A stretch of 64,000 nucleotides of DNA from Whalleya microplaca (lineage: Eukaryota > Ascomycota > Sordariomycetes > Xylariales > Xylariaceae), in the NCBI GenBank assembly GCA_022497155.1, contig MU385711.1:620001-684000 (forward strand), in the 5' to 3' direction. Positions within the stretch are counted from its first letter, which is position 1. Every line of letters begins with the position of its first letter. A program made the position numbers and the translations under genes. Shown piece by piece: positions 1,927 through 34,109 of this stretch. Under the pieces are notes generated by a model. That model did no database searches, was not told where the DNA came from, and saw only the letters and a program-made list of their open reading frames with translations.

Positions 1927-3073
1927 GAGCTACGCGAGTGCATACGAAACTAAACTAGCTGACTTTTAAACACTATCGCTGTTACGGCAGTACCTTTTAT
2001 TTTATTTTATTCTGTCTATTATGGCATTCTTATTTACTCATACGACGTTTACACATTATCGATTTTACTACTACTACACCACGGCCACAACGCCTCGACG
2101 ATATCTATCTATTTGCTCTATCTACTCATTCTTGCTTTCTTTCTTTCTTCACCCACTTTCTCGCTCACCCAGGATGACGATCACGCGATCATGTAATCAT
2201 GATGTGTGATCTTGTACTATATTTATTACTGCATGGCATACCTGGCATACATTACATTTCCTCGGCGTTCGGGACCGTTACCGGTACACTTTTACATTGG
2301 GGATGGGGATGGGGATGGGGGAATAAAGTGGGTTCGTTGGTTGGTTGAATCCGGTTTTTGGAGTTCAGCATTGGCGAGTCACAGGGGAGGGGAGGGGAGG
2401 GGAGGGGACATGGTGATACCCAAAATAGGATCGGGCACTGGACGTTCGCTGAATACGTTGTTGTTACTTTTTGTTGTGTGTATAATATTTAGTTCTGGCA
2501 GTGGTGGGTGGTGGCGCATGAGACTAGCAAAAGGCGAGCAAAAGTTGGAGTCAAGATTAAGTCGAAATCGCAAGATGACTACACTATACACTACATACAC
2601 ATTTCACAGAAGTTGTGCTTAGATTTGAGCACGCTGTACAACACAATGAGGAAAAATGTTTACTATTTCAATTATAGCCTTGTCTACTTTGAACTATTTC
2701 ATGAACTGTAACTGTGAGATAGACAGATCCAATTCCTAATAGCGCCATTGGCCTCTATATTTACTCTATCAGCTAGTTAGCTCATTTCAATGTCTGTCTC
2801 TCTTCGGAGCTATAACGCAAAAGGCAAGACATGTCTCAAAAGTCGTACGACCGCACACTTAGTCCAATGGAGTTAGTCGGGCTCCTCGGGGATTCGTGTG
2901 TACAATGTAATGGAAGTTAATTTAGAACGGCAAGCTGTAAGTCCGTTGCACGTTGTCGTTGTTGCGCAGATAAGCGCGTTGTGAGAGAGGAAGGCTGAGT
3001 CCAATATATATATATTATGTACGTATGAATTGTCGTCATCCTTCGATATGTATTCCTTCATAGCCTCGTTGAA

Positions 3074-3108
<35 letters not shown>

Positions 3109-3110
3109 AC
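3074..3110. repeat. (CCTG)n microsatellite
   Basis: About nine consecutive CCTG units with a single change near the 3' end. Confidence 0.9.
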
Positions 3111-3994
3111 CTATAGGTATCTAACTACTTTAAGTATTTAACGAACTATTGCTGTATAACTGCTGCACAAGACCTGTACCCCGGCCTCGGTTACCCAAGT
3201 CGATAGAGATAGGGCGACGGAGGTGAGTGCACCACAGCTGGGATATGCAGCGGCAGCGGTTCCGGCTGCGATCGATGGCAGTGCAACGGTTAAAAGAGGT
3301 GTGAAGGAGGCAGTAAAGGTGGTTAACTAGTCGCCTATAGTAACTAATAACTGATCTCAATTAACTAACTGACTGACAGCGGGATGTGGTGTGTGTGTGT
3401 GTGTAGTGGGGGAAATCGGGGCTCATCCGCTAACCCACCCAGGCACAGGGAATGACTAATAAGGGCGCCCGCTACAGAATTTTCTGCATTGTGGTCAGGG
3501 TACCAGCTCCCACCGGCGCGGGGGCGGCACAGCATGCACCACGGGCACCAAACCAGCCGAAATGCAGCCCGAGCTAGCTAAATTTAAGGTACCTAAGCAG
3601 CTAAACCTTCTTTCTTAGCGAATGGAGAAATATTTTTTTTTTTTTTTTTTTAGGTACTGACTGCAGACACATACATACACACTGCCACCCCCAACCAACA
3701 TACCTTCAACACATTGCACCAACGCAACCAACGCAACCAACGCAACCAACGAACCAACGAACCAGCCTACGTACATACTTACACGTACACAAGGCATCTG
3801 TATGCGATCGAGAGTTCGCACGCCGCAAGGTCCCCAGCTGAATCCGAACCCGGCCACTCGTCCCCGGCCTACCATCCGTCCAGCCAGCCTACGCAAGCGA
3901 AGTCCTAGCTCAACCACCTGAGACTTGTACAAACCCACGCCGGCGGCCTCTACCTCCCACAAGTCACACCCCCCAGCCCAACCCAACAAACACA

Positions 3995-4339
3995 ATGGCC
4001 CAAGGCGCAATAAAAAAGAAACCCACGGCCTCCGGCGGTGGCGGCGGTAGCGGTGCGAGGAAAAACAAGCCGCAGCCGCCGAAGACCAAGAAGGGCGCGC
4101 GCGTCGTCAAGGCCGCCAAGGCCTCCAAGGCCGACACCATGACGCGGCGGTACGCCGCCGGGCTCGTCGCCCAGACGGAGAAGCTGCTTGGTGAGAGGGC
4201 GGGGCACTTGGAGCTTGTTGGGGGGAAGGGCAAGGGGAAGGGGAAGGCTAATGCTGGGGGTAAAGAGGCGGGGAAGGGGGGTGCAAAGGGGAATGGGAAG
4301 GGTGTTGGCGTGAAAGGGGGGAGTCGGAAATTTGGGTGA
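3995..4339 (+). CDS. UPF0390 / DUF2462 family small basic protein
   Basis: This intronless gene encodes 114 residues. It starts with MAQGAIKKK, the hallmark start of the DUF2462/UPF0390 family (related to animal C19orf53, Leydig cell tumor 10 kDa protein). A Gly/Ser-rich linker, a PKTKKGAR-like basic motif around residue 28-36 and a predicted helix with TRRYAAGLVAQTEKLL and RAGHLEL (about 48-75) follow, matching the family pattern in which a helical TE+...L segment ends with a G-x-L-E/K-L motif. The last 40 residues are a lysine/glycine low-complexity tail longer than I would expect for the family. The biochemical role is not known to me; the charge suggests a nuclear or nucleolar, RNA- or ribosome-associated protein. 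The ATG context (cacaATGGCC) is good. Confidence 0.8.
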   Translation: MAQGAIKKKPTASGGGGGSGARKNKPQPPKTKKGARVVKAAKASKADTMTRRYAAGLVAQTEKLLGERAGHLELVGGKGKGKGKANAGGKEAGKGGAKGNGKGVGVKGGSRKFG

Positions 4340-4964
4340 GCGAGTGGAGGGTATGGGATGAGATGAGATGAGATGTGAAGGATCACCAGGCTCAGGGTTC
4401 ATGAGTGTTTTTATGAGAATTCGGAAGATGAAGGGATGCACGCGGTGTCCAACGCCCGAGAATACGGCGAGCGAGCGAGCGAGCGAGCGCTTGCGTGAAG
4501 GGTAACTGGTGTTGGGTGGATGAGCCACAGCCGTGTGAAAGGGGGGGAGGCAGGGAGCGGACGTTGGTGGACGTCGCCGGGGGAGGGATGCGGCGCAGGC
4601 CCGGCCCGGACGGGGATTTTGATCCTCGGTGAGTGTTGGGCGTTGGCGTTGGCGTTGGTTGGAGCTGGACAGGGTGGAAAAGCCCCAGCCCGTGAACTCT
4701 GGTGTTGCTCATTAGCGAGATCGCTCATCTCATAGTCATCAGGCTAGAGGTGGAAAGGTGGGGAGTATAGTAGGCTTCATCTTGACGGTAAATGAGAGAA
4801 GACTGTTCTCAGGCATGTGCTCACCAAGTAGGGCATAACGCCTAATGGAAAAGAATATTTCAATAAGGGAATTTATTCAAGTGCCGGTTCAATAAGGGAC
4901 GTAATTTATAATGCTATTCATGATGTGTCGTGGTTCATCATTCGTGAGCCCTCAAATAAATCCT
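4340..4964. other. Intergenic with simple repeats
   Basis: This is the space between a plus-strand gene and the 3' end of a minus-strand gene. It contains GATGA repeats (about 4357-4375), a (GAGC)n tract at about 4467-4489 and GTTGGC repeats at about 4637-4660. No coding sequence is supported. Confidence 0.6.
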
Positions 4965-26419: not shown

Positions 26420-28539
26420 CGCGGCGCTCGGTGCCTGTTATCGTCGTTCTGGCCGTGTGGTCGGTTCTCCCATCTCAGGGTTCTCCTTAGTTGGTTGCTT
26501 GTCTGTAAACGTCACGAACTGCGCCGTTGTAGTGTCTGTCATTCGGGTGCTGATATTCGAGCGCGAGTGAGGCCGGTGTCAACGGTACATGGCAATTGAA
26601 CCAGGAGGCGATGTGAGTGGAGGCGGAAGACCATCGTGTCTTGACGGATTTCTGGGTTATGAAAAATCTCGGGGCTCCTGGCTCCGAAGGAAAGATGTCT
26701 CCTCACTTTTCTGTCCTGGACGTTACGACGTTGGATTCCGGGGACTTGGTATAGTGGTTATATTGCTCCGCCAATCAACTTATATGATGGTGGCTACCCT
26801 GGTCATGGAGAATGTTCTCCACCTGTTCATCCTGGATAATGGTTACGATTGCACAAGTTATATCTGATAGTCACGTTTTCAGGGGGTGTATATCAATTGA
26901 GTCCTCTGTATATCAATAACGAAGCAGCCATAGTTGCTAGTGCAGTGATCGGTATTATATCGCACTCACAGCTTCTCATACAATACCCTACTGTGATGAA
27001 TTATACACGCGAAAGGCTTGCAGGAACGACGCTCAGAACCCATTAGCATGCTGTAAACCAATATGAATTATTTACAGATGCTCTCTAGTTCTCACGCGAG
27101 TGTACACACGTCTGATTGTATGCGATACAAATCTTGTGATAATGAGATGCACGCAAGAACCATGCCTGTCTATGTTTCTCGTGGGGTCTTGTCACAGTAC
27201 CCCTATATACCGGAGGCTTCAGGGGATAGGAGCTGAAAGCAAAGCATAAAAGGGAAACTTTTCTAGAACTCTCATAAATTTTAATCTAATGAACAATAGT
27301 AGTAATAAAATGGTAGTTTTTAAATATAAGCAATCCTATGTTGATGTGAACCTTGTTAAGATACGCCCTATAGGGCTGAGGGTGGTACAGGCCTATGTAT
27401 GGCCGATCGCCTATAAATATATTTATAAGGGGCTCTGCCACCTTCCTATAGCTTCACCTTGCACTATCCCAATCGAGTCACTATATTCCTCATTACTTTG
27501 TGCGATATTGACACAAATATCACTCCCAAACACTTTGAAGGGCTAAAAGTAGAAATGCACCGTTGGGCAAGATAACCCCTATCCGAAGGTAAATTTTTTA
27601 GCTATAAAATGTAGCCTATATCAAAATGCGGTTGATTCTGCTGTCAATGTCCAGGTAAACCCATGTACGACCTCAGCAGTCGCTGACCCCAAAGAGTCTC
27701 CTTATTAGGAAGGTAGTTGTCATAATGCACGGCCATAACCTCGCCCAATTCGGCATCTACTTGGCCTTGGGTTCAGTCCATCTCTTTTCAAACTGCCCTA
27801 TGTGTTCCCTTGCTGATTTGACTCTCTCCGCTGAGCTTTTGCCCACCACAGACAACATTTCGGTGATAGTAGGTGGTTCTGAGAGGTAGTGTTGAAGCAT
27901 AGCTGTTGGTCGGGTTTCTTGTCTATTTGATGTGGTATGCATGTCAGCTCGTTGCGTCTCCTTGAGTGGTTTGGGGGCCATTGATGATCCATGTAATGCG
28001 CATTACGGAACGGAACATAGTACAGACATAAGCTTACCTTTTGGCATCGGTAAACGTCGGCGATGGTGGGTTCGAAGCTCGTGACATTTTCAACACGTGT
28101 ATCCAAGTGTATGGGCAATTAAACAAATACTAAGTTTATACTGTATATTAGAGAGCTCGATAGTATAAACCTATAAGTCTATCATTGTGGATTAAGCTCA
28201 ATCTAAATGGAGCAATCACTCATCGCTTATTTATGTACTCTGATTTTGGCAACATCCTCTACAGCATCTCGAATTCTACTAGAAGCGATATTGAGCATTA
28301 TGATGATGATTTGCTACGGTCTGACATATAGAGAATAACGAAAGCTAATTACTGAGAAGAAACGTTTAGCTGAGACTAGTAGTGCGCAGCTGCGCACAAC
28401 GTTATATGCACAATATGATCTTGCATGCACAGCCACAAAATCTCACCACCCTCGCCATTAAACGAAGGTGTCACATACGGGATTGTTTTTTACACCTTAG
28501 CAATTCTTACCAATTAACACCTCAAATGGGTATGTAGCT
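26420..28539. other. Intergenic, AT-rich, with a dispersed repeat
   Basis: About 2.1 kb. The part next to 26420 is the presumed promoter of the GT90 gene. The rest is AT-rich and contains the repeat at 27354-27500 and a 16-bp perfect palindrome (GTGCGCAGCTGCGCAC, 28382-28397). A minus-strand frame at 27757-27981 (74 residues) is of unknown status. Confidence 0.5.
27354..27500 (-). repeat. Dispersed repeat, copy 1
   Basis: The reverse complement of this segment matches 52972-53112 closely over about 145 bp, including an exact run of 24 bases (CTATAGGAAGGTGGCAGAGC plus four more) and a second run through CCACCCTCAGCCCTATAGGG. The similarity stops on both sides. No coding potential and no family recognised. 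Confidence 0.75.
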
Positions 28540-31500
28540 ATGACTTCAAAGGAAGATAATACGAAAGCTCTACAGGAGACACCGAGCCTTGATATTGTAA
28601 CAACGTTCGAGCATGCACCATCATTACCAGCCATTACATTAACGCCTCTATCAACAACTACTGGAATTCGTCGGTCCATTTCAAATTCTAGTTCAAATCC
28701 CGGCTTGACCCGTACCCCTAGTCCTTCTAGCCCTTCTAGCTCTGTTGATACCGCTATTTCAAGTCCATATTCAGGACCCTACCGCCCTTCCGAATCATGG
28801 AGTTCGTTCTACTCTACTTGGAAGGATTCCTATGATGGATCTAGATTGATGCCTCCCCCAGCGTCCTACGCGGCTCGTACCCCGCCGCCAACATTTGAGG
28901 GAACCATCAACTCGACTGAAAAGATTGTATTTGATTCTTTTCAACCTCCCCAGGAACTTAATCGTCTACAGAAAGGATTACCTGATCATGGCAATTCAAC
29001 TCATTCGCCACCCCGAAAGGGGCGGCCGTTCAAGTGTGACATATGTCCACTATCATTCTACAGTAACCATGATCTTGGGAGACACAGGATATTCCATGAA
29101 GATCCCAAGACTTTCTCGTGCTCTGTTTGCCATAGGTACTTTTTTAAGGAAGATTCTTTAAAGGTATGAGCATCATGATGGCTTCCGACTGTGTTTGAGA
29201 TATACTTAATACTAATGAGGACCAGATGCATATGAATAATTGTGAAGAGGGCAAAGAGATGGTCTTTAGAGATGACGGCGACGATGTTCCAATGGCCAGA
29301 GCTGTTACAACCACCCATTCCTGAATATCCCCGCAACCAGCTACCACGTGATTTATGGTTGCCAAGAGGAAATGGCTTGGCAACCAAGTGATTGCCAAGA
29401 GATAATGGCTTGGCAACCAGATGGTTGCCAAGGCCCTAGTGGCTTGGCAATCCAGTCCCAGTTACTAGGAAGCTATTCAGATATAAAAGGACTGTGTTTC
29501 GCCGTCCCTTAGATAGTCTCTCTTTCTGCTAGCCAGCGATCAATCTAAGTATTTTACCTTTCACGCCTTTTGTTATTTCAAATCAAGACCTGTGGTAACG
29601 GCTTCGTTACAAGAGCAATGAAGGCTGTTACGGAGGGGCGTCTTCACCTTCGCGGAGGCAAGGGTCATATAAACAATATACAAACTTCCGTGCTCATGCA
29701 GTCTCTTGGTTTAAGTTTGCCGGAGCACGATCAAACCTGGGAACAGCCTTCAACCCCATCGAGTCCACAAATCAAGACAGAAATTTCAGATCCTCTCAAT
29801 ATAGAGGATACTAGTCTCGCAGGCAAGACGCTGCCAAGACCAAAAAGAGAGGATACTACCTTGCATATAACTCAGAATCACGAAACTCGCCCAACAATCA
29901 AAAGTTTCCTGGACCAGTATAGCTCTGTGAGATACCGCCGACCACATTATACTATCTGATATATCATGCTAACGGTCAAGGATCAAGGAAAACCTCGGGG
30001 AATATGCAGACTTCTACAAACATGAAGATACGTATCTGAACGACTCAAATGCTAAAATGGCACCCGATCGAATGGATTTTCACAGTCATACGCTTTGCGA
30101 ACCAGAGAATGTGGCATCAGATTTGATAGAGTATGATCGAGCAGTGTCCCAAACGCCACAGAGTGATGGTAGTTACGTTGTTATTGGGGAATATGTTGAT
30201 GAGAAGAAAAACCAAATCATTGATGAAGTCGTCATAGCAGTGACGAATTGGCTACGATCAAGGTTCTTGTTAGCTCATCAAGCCACTGGTAATACCGGAG
30301 AAGCCTCGCAGCCTCAAGGTGCGCCCCCGGCGCAACCAGAACAGCGACAATCCTCCAATAACCCTGATCGATCTAAGAAAAGAAAATTGAGAGAAAGGGG
30401 AGGCGATGACAATATGGAAGATGACACTGATGATGACCAAGATCCTTACCATATCGGCACTTCTAAAGCCCAAGGCAAAAGGCGCGAGCTAGCAAAATTG
30501 GCATGTCCGTATTTTAAGTATAACCCTGCTAAATATAAAGAATGGAGGATCTGCCCCGGCCCTGGGTGGCGAGACGTGCACCGAGTCAAGTATATACAGC
30601 TTTGATTCGTTACACAAGCATAGTGAAGCTGACTGAAACACAGAGAACATCTTTACCGGAGGCATCGGCAACCAAGGCACAGGTGTGGCCGCTGCTGGCA
30701 ACCTTTCGATGATGAGCAAGACTATGTCAGCCACCAACGGACCACAGAGCCATGTTCCCTTAAAGAAAAGGAGCCAATTGAAGGCTTCGACGCCAGCCAG
30801 GAAAAGAAACTTAAATCGAGGAAAAAAGTTGGAAAAGACAATGACACGAGCGAGGTCGCAAAGTGGCAAGCGGTCTTTTCCATACTATTTCCCCATGTTC
30901 CAAAGGAAGACATACCAACTCCTTGTAGGTGATCATTCTTGGGAGCTAGTGATAATGCTTACCAGAGTCAACAGTCTACGATTACGATCGGCTTGCAAGC
31001 GTGGGACCGGATTCGCAGAATTACTTGACAGAATGTGAGGAGTACATCCTCCGAGAAGTACCCCCGCGCCTGCGGCAGATTTTACGGCCAGAGCTTGACA
31101 GAGACCTCAACATCATTGAGGAAAGCCTGAAGATAAGAGCAATAGAGTGCGTTTTTCAGAGTCACCTTTTTATTATACCATTTTTCATGAGCTATGTCTA
31201 CTTTTATATTCTCTGTCCTCTTCGTTAAAAACCCCTGGAGGCATAACTTAGAGCTTCTGAAATTGCCTGAAAAGATTTCGAACTAACTCTACATTGCGTG
31301 CAGCTGTGTGAAAACTCTTCTTGAAGACACTTTCCGTGAATTTAGGCAAGTACACCAGCAGAAAACGATACCAGAGACCAAACCCGAGTCTGTGAGCTTA
31401 GCAGAAGAAGCCGGCCCTAGCTCTTCTTCTGGTCCCAGCTCTACACAACCACTAGCAGCGACAATATTACAGGGTTACGATATAGGCTCCTTCGAGCAGA

Positions 31501-31697
31501 ATACCTTTTTGGGGTTTGACAGCGGCCTCGACTTTTTTGATCCGTCTGCGCTGGCCAATCTGGAAGCGTCGTTGGGCGAGGGTGTACATATGGAGGAAAT
31601 CCTGCAGCCAACAAATGAGTGCAGGGAGCAGAGACGGTCTGACTCCGGCTATGATTCTAACATTGCAGACCGTCCAAGTCAGGACTTGTCTGAATGA
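28540..31697 (+). pseudogene. C2H2-type zinc-finger protein gene, split by a solo LTR
   Basis: Exons 28540-29163, 29226-29926 (contains the LTR), 29988-30589, 30644-30924, 30975-31146 and 31304-31697. Exon 1 ends in two fingers: FKCDICPLSF...H-x3-H and FSCSVCHRYFF...H-x3-C, the second completed after splice 1. A later segment has KRRELAKLACPYFKYNP and CPGPGWRDVHRVKEHLYRRH, the cysteine/histidine block typical of fungal uncharacterised C2H2 proteins. At 29303 a solo LTR enters codon by codon and brings a stop at 29322-29324, leaving 240 residues with both N-terminal fingers. Without LTR and one 5-bp duplication, the exons sum to 2460 bp (819 residues) with no stop. Downstream exons show no decay, so the insertion is recent or tolerated. 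Probable DNA-binding regulator; target unknown. Confidence 0.82.
29303..29611 (+). mobile_element. Solo LTR, 309 bp, with 5-bp target duplication
   Basis: The element begins TGTTACAACCACCC and ends GGCTTCGTTACA (TG..CA, with TGTTAC/GTTACA inverted ends). It is flanked by AGAGC at 29298-29302 and 29612-29616. A TATAAAA box is at 29482-29488 and a CACGTG at 29345-29350. The middle holds three hairpin units built from TTGCCAAG and CTTGGCAA. A second copy is at 39070-39322 in the opposite orientation. No internal retrotransposon genes remain, so recombination between two LTRs probably removed them. Confidence 0.93.
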
Positions 31698-32164
31698 TAT
31701 TTTGTACATTACGAAACACGTCACCTCAACTCGAACGGGAATTAGCCATATTAAAGGGATTATGGATACTAATTCTGTTGGATCCGATCCGGCGGGAATG
31801 CGATGATTTCCTATAGTAATTGCGGGACTTGAGAAATTCTTACCCACTCAAATACAATCCCATTATAGTCCTATATGATCAAATGTTGACTTTCTCTTCT
31901 GAGTGGACCCCGGGAAGAGGACTTGTTCACCTCCAGGTTAAGGCGTACACCCGACTCTGTAATCAGCTTCAGGAAGTGTCGTCCCATCCATAATGCTTAT
32001 CAGATGGATATTTTGGAGATGTCAATAGTTTGAAGCTCGCTTTTCGACATAGAAACTATGGGTCCGCACCTAATCCTCACTATTGATATGAATATACACA
32101 CTAAGGCATCATCATCATCCTTTAGATATCGTAAGCGTTGGCGTTTGTCACGTGACAAGAATCA
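31698..32164. other. Intergenic spacer
   Basis: 467 bp between the zinc-finger gene and the CorA-like gene. It probably contains the terminator of the first and the promoter of the second. Nothing else is seen. Confidence 0.5.
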
Positions 32165-34109
32165 ATGCAGCTGATAATCCTGGGACCTGAACATATCATT
32201 TTCAATTTCAAACAAAGCGTAGCCTTATCCCGCATCCCTCTTCCGAATACCTGTATCAAATGGCAGAGGGAAAAAGAAAGTCAGAAAATGGTCGGGAAAG
32301 CAGACAATATAACTCAGGCAAACACCAAGTTGAACTCAGCGTCGGATCATACGAAGAAATCTCTGGAACTTAATATCAGTGTCCTAACTCTATGCGACGA
32401 ACACATAGGCAAGCCCAATGTGTCTAAAATTTCAGACCTTGACAGCCTTGATAAACATATCACCCTGAGTGATACAGGGACTGGTTCCGAAAGGATGTTC
32501 ATCGTTAATGGATTGCACTTTAACTCGGCTCAAGCACTAGCATCGCGACTGGATATTGATCCAGCCTTTTTCGATGCCCACCTCCTGCGGACTAGATATG
32601 TGCCTCTGGACGATCGATGGGATCAGGCGCAGAGCCTTCAGCTCGAATACCCTGATATTGAACAGTTCACAGTGCAGCCAAACGTTCCCCAGACGCAAAG
32701 ATCTGAGGATAGCGTCGCCCTTTCTGAGGTAGTCTTCAACCCGGATCGCAAGGACGAGTATTTCCAATGTCGGTCTAAGGGGTGTTTGAGCGCTTTTATG
32801 ATACCCCTGACCCCATTTGAGCTACTAGGTGATCCTAGAAACTTGAGATGGTTCGCAAAGTTCCAAAGGATGTCTTGGTGGAGGAGTAATTTGGATTCAA
32901 AGAATTGTATGATTCTCCGGTATACCTGCATTCTAACTAGTTCATCATCTAACACACTGATCGCTAGCCATTTTATTAATTGATAGGGACTTACGTGTAA
33001 TTTTAACGGATCAGGGCTTACGCACTCCGTCGCTATATAAGATGAAATGTATTGAGAGTACCTGGAGTCCATTTTTAGACGCAATTCAGCGTGCCAATCA
33101 GGACTCGGATAGCAGGTCAACATCACGGATACATAGCGCGACCTTCAGTGAGAAATTACTTCATCCTTCCCATGAAAAGTCAACAGAAGAGGCTGTTCAG
33201 ACATTTTCGCGGCGTGTCTTGAGCCAGTGGCAACGTTTTGCCTCTTTAGTGTCTGATCCTATCGGCAGCGGCTGGAGTCACTCCGCCTCTGAAGTTTTTA
33301 TGATTGCGGAGGAGTGACTCGAATTTAATGCTTTGTCGTTCAAAGGTATCTAAAAGCAACACTCTTGCTTCGTGGACAGCACTAATATTTGTAAGATACA
33401 AGAGTACCAGAACCTCTCGACTGGAATAGTTGTAGGTCGACGCTTGCGAACAGGAGACAGAAAATGAATGACCATTTCGTATTGCCACATCTGCACGAAA
33501 TTTCCAAAGGAATCGCCGAACTTGTACGTTCTCAGCACTCTTCAGCACAGCTGACGATACCCCCACCGACATCTTCCGAGGATCGCGAAACTCGAAGGTC
33601 TTTGGACCGAATTGCGTATATGGGTGGCCTGCTGTTGCCATTTTCCATCATAGCGGGCTTATTCTCGATGGCACCTGATTTTGGACCGGGTGGCAAAGTG
33701 AGTGGCGTACAGAATTCTTCAAATCTGCGTCTTTCGCCCTCTTTCAAAATCAAGAGTTCCCCAATATGAATAATCAGGAGCGGGAGGGCTCCAAAGATAA
33801 ATCTTATACATATCTAATCTCCGCCAATTACTAAGGAACAGAAAATACTAACCTTAAGTGTTGCAGTGGTTCTTCGCCTACTGGGTGATTTGTATACCCT
33901 CCATGCTCATTGCTCTAGCATTGATCTACGCAGATAGCATCCGGAAAAAGCTTGTCAGCAAAACACATATTGTGCATATGGGAAGATTGGTGTCGACTAG
34001 GTTGCGAATACATAACCCGGAAATTCCGACCCAAGAAGTGAGAGTGGAACTAGGTTGGATTAGAGCCTTAGGCACACTGGTCGGGTATAAACCCAGATGG
34101 GTACACTGA
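32165..34109 (+). pseudogene. CorA-like two-helix membrane protein, one in-frame UGA
   Basis: Exons 32165-32919, 32987-33345, 33411-33697 and 33867-34109. The C-terminal part reads RRSLDRIAYMGGLLLPFSII, then GLFSMAPDFGPGGK (joined across splice 3 to WFFAYWVICIPSMLIALALIYADSIRK), giving two membrane helices. This is the fungal CorA-like Mg2+-transporter-type ending often found in large cytosolic proteins. At 33315-33317 a TGA interrupts ...FMIAEE/LEFNALSFK; family members carry a Trp there by my recollection (AEEWLEFN). The 65-bp intron at 33346-33410 has a proper donor, branch and acceptor and restores frame after it. Alternative: an intron 33314-33453 would skip the stop but also remove LEFNALSFK. 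A second in-frame start at 32288 is possible. Call: recently inactivated gene, or readthrough, or a longer intron. Transport has not been shown for such proteins. Confidence 0.65.

What the first reader, a model, noticed from the sequence alone, without database searches (positions are those of the whole stretch)
28540..31697. Solo LTR splits a zinc-finger gene and the target duplication is perfect
The LTR (29303-29611) sits in exon 2 with AGAGC on both sides. Dropping LTR plus one AGAGC joins the two halves in frame and makes six exons sum to 820 codons without a stop. The allele as read stops 8 codons after entry, leaving 240 residues with two fingers. The LTR carries TATAAAA and CACGTG and the next codon start (ATG at 29618) is just downstream, so the C-terminal part could be transcribed from the LTR as a separate protein. 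This is a recent, possibly polymorphic, gene-splitting event.
Basis: partly seen in the sequence, partly recalled or inferred. Interest (0 to 1): 0.75.

Follow-up and report, generated by a model that had tools for sequence, protein, structure and literature searches.

The report
Young solo LTR splitting fungal gene
A leftover end of a mobile element sits inside a zinc-finger gene of a fungus and cuts it in two; this is an ordinary kind of insertion, but a young one, and the public gene model begins right behind the element, so the back half may now run on the element's own promoter.

Summary
A 309-bp LTR (29303-29611) flanked by AGAGC interrupts exon 2 of a six-exon C2H2 zinc-finger gene (28540-31697); without LTR and one AGAGC the exons are 820 codons with no internal stop. 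The genome is Whalleya microplaca: its public protein F5B20DRAFT_520893 (585 aa) is identical to the C-half from ATG 29618; no N-half protein was found. Of 39 other copies examined, 26 are solo LTRs with perfect 5-bp duplications; four complete elements (7.7-7.9 kb) are AT-rich with RIP-like decay. This copy has no private substitution; eight other long copies compared have 1-5 each: it is young. A TATA box and an ATG-free leader precede ATG 29618, so LTR-driven expression of the C-half is plausible but unshown. One ancestral gene is supported by anatomy, not by a spanning ortholog: in the nearest relative the halves are also two gene models, apparently on one contig, broken elsewhere. At least two other solo LTRs of the family lie in long open frames. 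A good example of a known kind.

The parts
28540..29163 (+). exon 1: 208 codons, low-complexity N-terminus, C2H2 finger 1 and the first half of finger 2
   Evidence: open frame and donor GTATGA; zf-C2H2 match for finger 1 at 19.5 bits, below the Pfam cut-off of 25.2; finger 2 read by eye
29164..29225 (+). intron 1 (62 nt)
   Evidence: GTATGA...TACTAAT...CAG; exon 2 completes finger 2 in frame (MHMNNC)
29226..29302 (+). exon 2, part before the LTR, ending with AGAGC
29298..29302 (+). target-site duplication, left copy AGAGC
29303..29611 (+). solo LTR, sense to the gene; three 33-nt hairpin-like repeats at 29356-29455, CACGTG at 29345, TATAAA at 29482, no ATG from 29480 to 29617
29612..29616 (+). 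target-site duplication, right copy AGAGC
29618..31697 (+). C-half, 585 aa over five exons (29618-29926, 29988-30589, 30644-30924, 30975-31146, 31304-31697); identical to the public protein F5B20DRAFT_520893

Best explanation
A full-length LTR retrotransposon (class not settled, perhaps Ty3/Gypsy-like) inserted in sense orientation into exon 2 of an 819-residue C2H2 zinc-finger gene of Whalleya microplaca, making a 5-bp duplication; recombination between its LTRs then left a 309-bp solo LTR. It is the youngest of the nine long-class copies compared. The upstream half now ends after 240 residues in the LTR, with two fingers. The downstream half, with the family core, keeps an open reading frame from an internal Met codon, with 6 bases between LTR and ATG. 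Shown: LTR, duplication, split frame, absence of private substitutions, identity of the annotated protein with the C-half. Inferred: one gene before the insertion (likely), loss of the full-length product (likely), LTR-driven expression of the C-half (about one in three).
For: Ends and duplication. 26 of 39 other copies with a perfect 5-bp duplication, and four complete elements of the family. 0 private substitutions here against 1-5 in each of eight other long-class copies. Finger 2 is completed only by exon 2, and that exon has no stop before the LTR and is in phase with the C-half, so before the insertion the N-half frame, once intron 1 is spliced, must have read into the C-half. Two C-half relatives, P0020 (783 aa) and P0096 (510 aa), carry two C2H2 fingers ahead of the same core in one protein. 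The halves of the nearest relative appear to lie on one contig: P0002 and P0114 both list a longest contig of 473462 bases. The public C-half model starts at ATG 29618. Of 40 single GT..AG pairs that keep the frame, none has a GT[AG]NG donor, and none of the 28 that begin at or before the LTR has a branch-like site, so splicing out is unlikely.
Against: No single annotated protein aligns with the N-half beyond the fingers: of the two N-half searches, one search gave only P0114, itself a separate model, which covers longer proteins, gave only a fish zinc-finger protein. In a pattern scan 61 of the first 70 C-half rows show no finger-like pattern ahead of the core, so the fused architecture is not the rule. 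P0020 and P0096 match the N-half only over fingers, a generic match. The Whalleya finger 1 scores below the Pfam cut-off while FL0662B P0114 scores above it, so the N-half may have been under weak constraint already. No RNA data.
Confidence: 0.85

Rival explanations
1. Gene fission with a working product (a continuation of the best explanation): the LTR supplies promoter, transcription start and ATG-free leader, and the C-half is expressed as a new 585-residue protein without the N-terminal fingers; the upstream transcript ends in the LTR.
For: TATA at 29482, no ATG until 29618, G at -3; a TATA at the same place in 39 of 39 other copies and no ATG behind it in 35 of 39; the public gene model begins at this ATG; relatives of 363-572 aa without a finger pattern ahead of the core are annotated.
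Against: No transcript data; a gene caller can choose this ATG by default; some of the short relatives may be truncated models, as P0002 looks to be; the C-half frame would still be open after so young an event.
Confidence: 0.35
2. Two separate genes all along: a finger gene ending in what I call intron 1, and a core gene behind it; the LTR fell between them or into the leader of the second.
For: In the nearest relative FL0662B the halves are two gene models, 200 aa and 450 aa; the N-model there ends at the place of intron 1 (LKVQPS), where the unspliced Whalleya frame also ends; 61 of 70 C-half rows show no finger-like pattern ahead of the core.
Against: Such an N-protein would stop inside finger 2 without its last two zinc ligands, whereas exon 2 completes it in frame behind a canonical intron; only 59 nt of open, in-phase exon lie between the end of finger 2 and the LTR, with no stop.
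Confidence: 0.1
3. Simple dead allele (the other continuation of the best explanation): both halves are remnants of a dispensable regulator.
For: The N-half ends early and no annotated protein for it was found; about eight other places in the genome encode weakly similar core proteins (28-41% identity).
Against: Both halves are fully open, but that is expected for a young insertion and does not show function.
Confidence: 0.5

Closest known systems
HAP1 of Saccharomyces cerevisiae S288C, interrupted by Ty1
   Same: A fungal transcription factor gene broken by an LTR retrotransposon in its coding region, young; passages of PMC5978988 seen say that of over 100 sequenced strains only S288c has it and that its function is reduced.
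   Different: There a Ty1 insertion in the 3' end of the coding region; here only a solo LTR, in exon 2, leaving most of the protein behind the LTR. That HAP1 binds zinc is recalled.
LTR-driven truncated genes of mammals (recalled; titles and abstract starts only)
   Same: An LTR inside a gene gives a promoter for a shortened protein.
   Different: There shown by RNA (recalled); here only anatomy.
Solo LTRs of LTR retrotransposons in general
   Same: Same anatomy, 5-bp duplication, many copies.
   Different: Most of the 26 others here do not sit in long open frames by a simple test; this one splits a gene.

Membership tests
solo LTR | multicopy LTR with fixed TG...CA ends | tested here: met
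   39 other copies examined; the TG..CA ends are shared by the intact ones, with changes in decayed or truncated ones
solo LTR | perfect target-site duplication directly at both ends, no internal region beside it | tested here: met
   AGAGC on both sides; coding exon on both sides
solo LTR | complete elements with the same LTRs in the genome | tested here: met
   C40, C83, C26, C16, about 7.7-7.9 kb, LTRs 81-95% identical to this one
Ty3/Gypsy LTR retrotransposon | gag-pol with reverse transcriptase before integrase | tested here: inconclusive
   internal regions AT-rich (22-25% GC); four ORF pieces of L063 had no Pfam match, two of them lying outside the stretch between the LTRs; one Integrase_H2C2 match with 4 stops at C87:56302-56478 in a stretch homologous to the internal region; no RVT_1, RVT_2 or Integrase_H2C2 match inside the four complete elements
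fungal C2H2 core protein family (label mine) | CPYFKYNPAKYKEW...HRVKEHLYRRH...CGRCW core | tested here: met
   71% identity over 458 columns to P0002; 112 other proteins at E <= 0.001
fungal C2H2 core protein family (label mine) | N-terminal C2H2 fingers in the same protein | tested here: inconclusive
   pattern scan of rows P0001-P0070 (of 113): 9 show a pattern hit ahead of the core or no core found, P0020 alone two clear fingers ahead of the core; P0096 has two by BLAST and Pfam
LTR-driven gene | transcripts that start in the LTR | not testable with these tools
   no RNA data at hand

The most novel reading that the evidence does not exclude
A solo LTR has split a regulator into two genes in one step: it ends the transcript of the finger part, and its own promoter and ATG-free leader express the core part as a new finger-less regulator, at a stage young enough that strains with and without the LTR may still coexist and can be compared.
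Probability: 0.2. Interest if true: 0.55.

Novelty: new member of a known kind. Interest (0 to 1): 0.33.

Why it matters
Gene fission by a retrotransposon is usually inferred long after the event (recalled). Here the event looks very young: the duplication is perfect and the LTR has no private substitution, in a genome where the four complete elements look decayed by RIP while the 26 solo LTRs do not. It also warns annotators: the public 585-residue model looks like the back half of a split gene. If the LTR drives it, promoter capture and gene fission could be studied in one population.

Tried and rejected
Splicing as a rescue: single GT..AG pairs of 45-600 nt with donors in 29226-29620 and acceptors up to 29926 that keep the frame were listed; 40 found, 25 of them removing the whole LTR. 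None has a GT[AG]NG donor or a GT[AG] donor together with a branch-like site; none of the 28 that begin at or before the LTR has a branch-like site. Two-intron solutions were not tried. A second copy of the gene: none found; the C-half finds itself exon by exon and weak paralogs, the N-half itself and one weak match on C22, and 29200-29302 is single-copy.

Element class: PF00665 gave no match in the whole genome; PF07727, PF00078 and PF17921 gave none inside the complete elements at C40, C83, C26 and C16, so the Gypsy label rests on one weak integrase match at C87. RVT_1 at C25:326023-326502 lies upstream of a 3' LTR, but that stretch did not align to the family's internal region. Rfam: nothing in 27000-33000. 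The bacterial promoter scan has no meaning here.

Papers: of nine searches none listed a title on this locus or on a solo LTR splitting a gene in Xylariales; listings with titles and abstract starts were seen, plus passages of PMC5978988 and PMC5478263 (the latter tells of solo LTRs beside genes, not inside them).

Full report
What was checked. The LTR at 29303-29611 starts TGTTACAACC and ends CTTCGTTACA, with AGAGC on both sides. As it stands, the frame gives seven residues from the entry into the LTR on and then stops, 240 residues in all.

Which organism and what is annotated. Search of the C-half found 113 proteins; the first, P0001, is F5B20DRAFT_520893 of Whalleya microplaca, 585 aa, identical over its whole length to the C-half from ATG 29618; its contig has 1752040 bases, as has contig C2 that holds the window. 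W. microplaca is placed in Xylariales. No W. microplaca protein with the N-half was found: by the tool's length rule one search covers proteins of about 132-420 aa and about 404-1284 aa.

The LTR family. One search scored 40 of 127 first-look candidates, so counts are lower bounds. All 39 other scored copies were fetched with 400-bp flanks: 26 of 39 have a perfect 5-bp duplication at both ends, that is, solo LTRs. The other 13 are nine LTRs of complete, nested or partial elements (C40 two, C83 two, C87 two, C26, C16, C25 one each), two truncated copies and two intact-ended copies without a 5-bp duplication. By eye on the flanks, the outer ends of the C83 and C87 elements carry matching 5 bp and those of C40 match at 4 of 5; C26 and C16 were not checked. 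Complete elements at C40, C83, C26 and C16 span about 7.7-7.9 kb. Their internal regions have 22-25% GC, TpA/ApT 1.31-1.35 and (CpA+TpG)/(ApC+GpT) 0.34-0.45, which I read as RIP (indices recalled); the nine element LTRs have 31-41% GC, the 26 solo LTRs 42-47% with 0.87-1.29 and 1.07-1.54, and the window LTR 45.6% with 1.0 and 1.38. Solo LTRs are shorter than what RIP usually attacks (recalled), which may be why they look clean. The LTRs come in a long class (three units of a 33-nt hairpin-like repeat in the window copy) and a short class of 273-279 bp, in which the motif count is two and two in 18 of 20 copies.

Age. Nine long-class LTRs were aligned: the window copy and L024, L025, L026, L028-L031 and L033, that is, eight of the 19 other long copies; the 11 decayed, truncated or element-borne ones were left out. 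The window copy has no private substitution and one private 2-nt insertion; the other eight have 1-5 private substitutions each (my count from its list, which corrects the '0-6' in my notebook entry). With 0 in 309 bp the 95% upper limit is about 1% divergence since it parted from the copies compared. This is relative, not a date. The short class was not used.

One gene before the insertion? For: finger 2 starts in exon 1 and gets its last zinc ligands from exon 2, and exon 2 runs open and in phase from there into the C-half. Being in phase has by itself a chance of one in three. P0020 and P0096 carry two fingers and the core in one chain. Against or unclear: the only relative found of the N-half's N-terminus is P0114 of FL0662B (55% identity over 88%), a separate 200-aa model. 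It lists a longest contig of the same length (473462) as P0002, the best C-half relative (71%), so the halves very likely lie together there. P0114 ends LKVQPS, where the Whalleya exon 1 ends SLK followed by the intron; read unspliced, the Whalleya frame also stops there (ORF 28540-29169). P0114 thus lacks the end of finger 2, so I take it for an unspliced, truncated model; P0002 starts at an inner Met (C-half residue 132). The DNA between is not held here. So a spanning ortholog is neither shown nor excluded. Finger 1 of Whalleya scores 19.5 bits against PF00096, under the cut-off, P0114 35.3: the N-half may have been drifting.

How it may work now. The LTR lies sense to the gene. TATAAA at 29482 is followed by no ATG until 29618, which has G at -3. 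A TATA sits 127-130 bases from the 3' end in 39 of 39 other copies, CACGTG is present in 31 of 39, and 35 of 39 have no ATG behind the TATA (ends of truncated copies are extrapolated). So the LTR offers a ready promoter and leader for whatever ATG follows. It also has AATCAA and TATTTT, possible 3'-end signals, which could end the upstream transcript. None of this is tested by RNA. Splicing around the LTR by one intron is unlikely.

Is it special? Flanks of the 26 solo LTRs were read for open frames without joining them. Two, L051 (C16) and L031 (C66), have open frames of 393/399 and 354/396 nt on the two sides (400 nt looked at on each), in phase across the insertion; a third, L049 (C4), has 234/195. 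In all three the LTR is antisense to the frame. The window copy gives only 102/339 in this test because an intron lies close by, so the test misses cases. Pfam gave no match for the four pieces of the first two. So splitting of frames by this family seems to recur, and the window copy differs in being sense and the youngest of those compared. The nearest precedent that I looked at is HAP1 with Ty1 in S288C (PMC5978988, passages).

Verdict. A real, young, well-preserved gene-splitting solo LTR; ordinary in kind, useful as a natural experiment. The strong claim, a new LTR-driven gene, stays open.

Noticed in passing
L071:2438-2711 (G000:C16:509937-510210): A solo LTR of the same family with duplication GCCAC inside a long open frame (ORF 1974-2471 runs into it, ORF 2574-4580 out of it), antisense; probably a second split gene.
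   Followed up: partly
L072:2368-2680 (G000:C66:191367-191679): Another solo LTR with duplication CAGAA between two open frames on the other strand; probably a third split gene.
   Followed up: partly
window:29356-29455: Three 33-nt units TTGCCAAG..CTTGGCAA in the LTR, hairpin-like; the motif number separates the long and short LTR classes.
   Followed up: partly
L063, L064, L067, L068: Complete elements of the family are AT-rich and decayed while the 26 solo LTRs are not, which suggests that LTR-LTR recombination came before RIP could act, or that short LTRs escape it.
   Followed up: partly
G000:C76:79526-79678: An Integrase_H2C2 match without stops in a 486-codon open frame; 29 of the 31 matches in this genome hold stops.
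   Followed up: no
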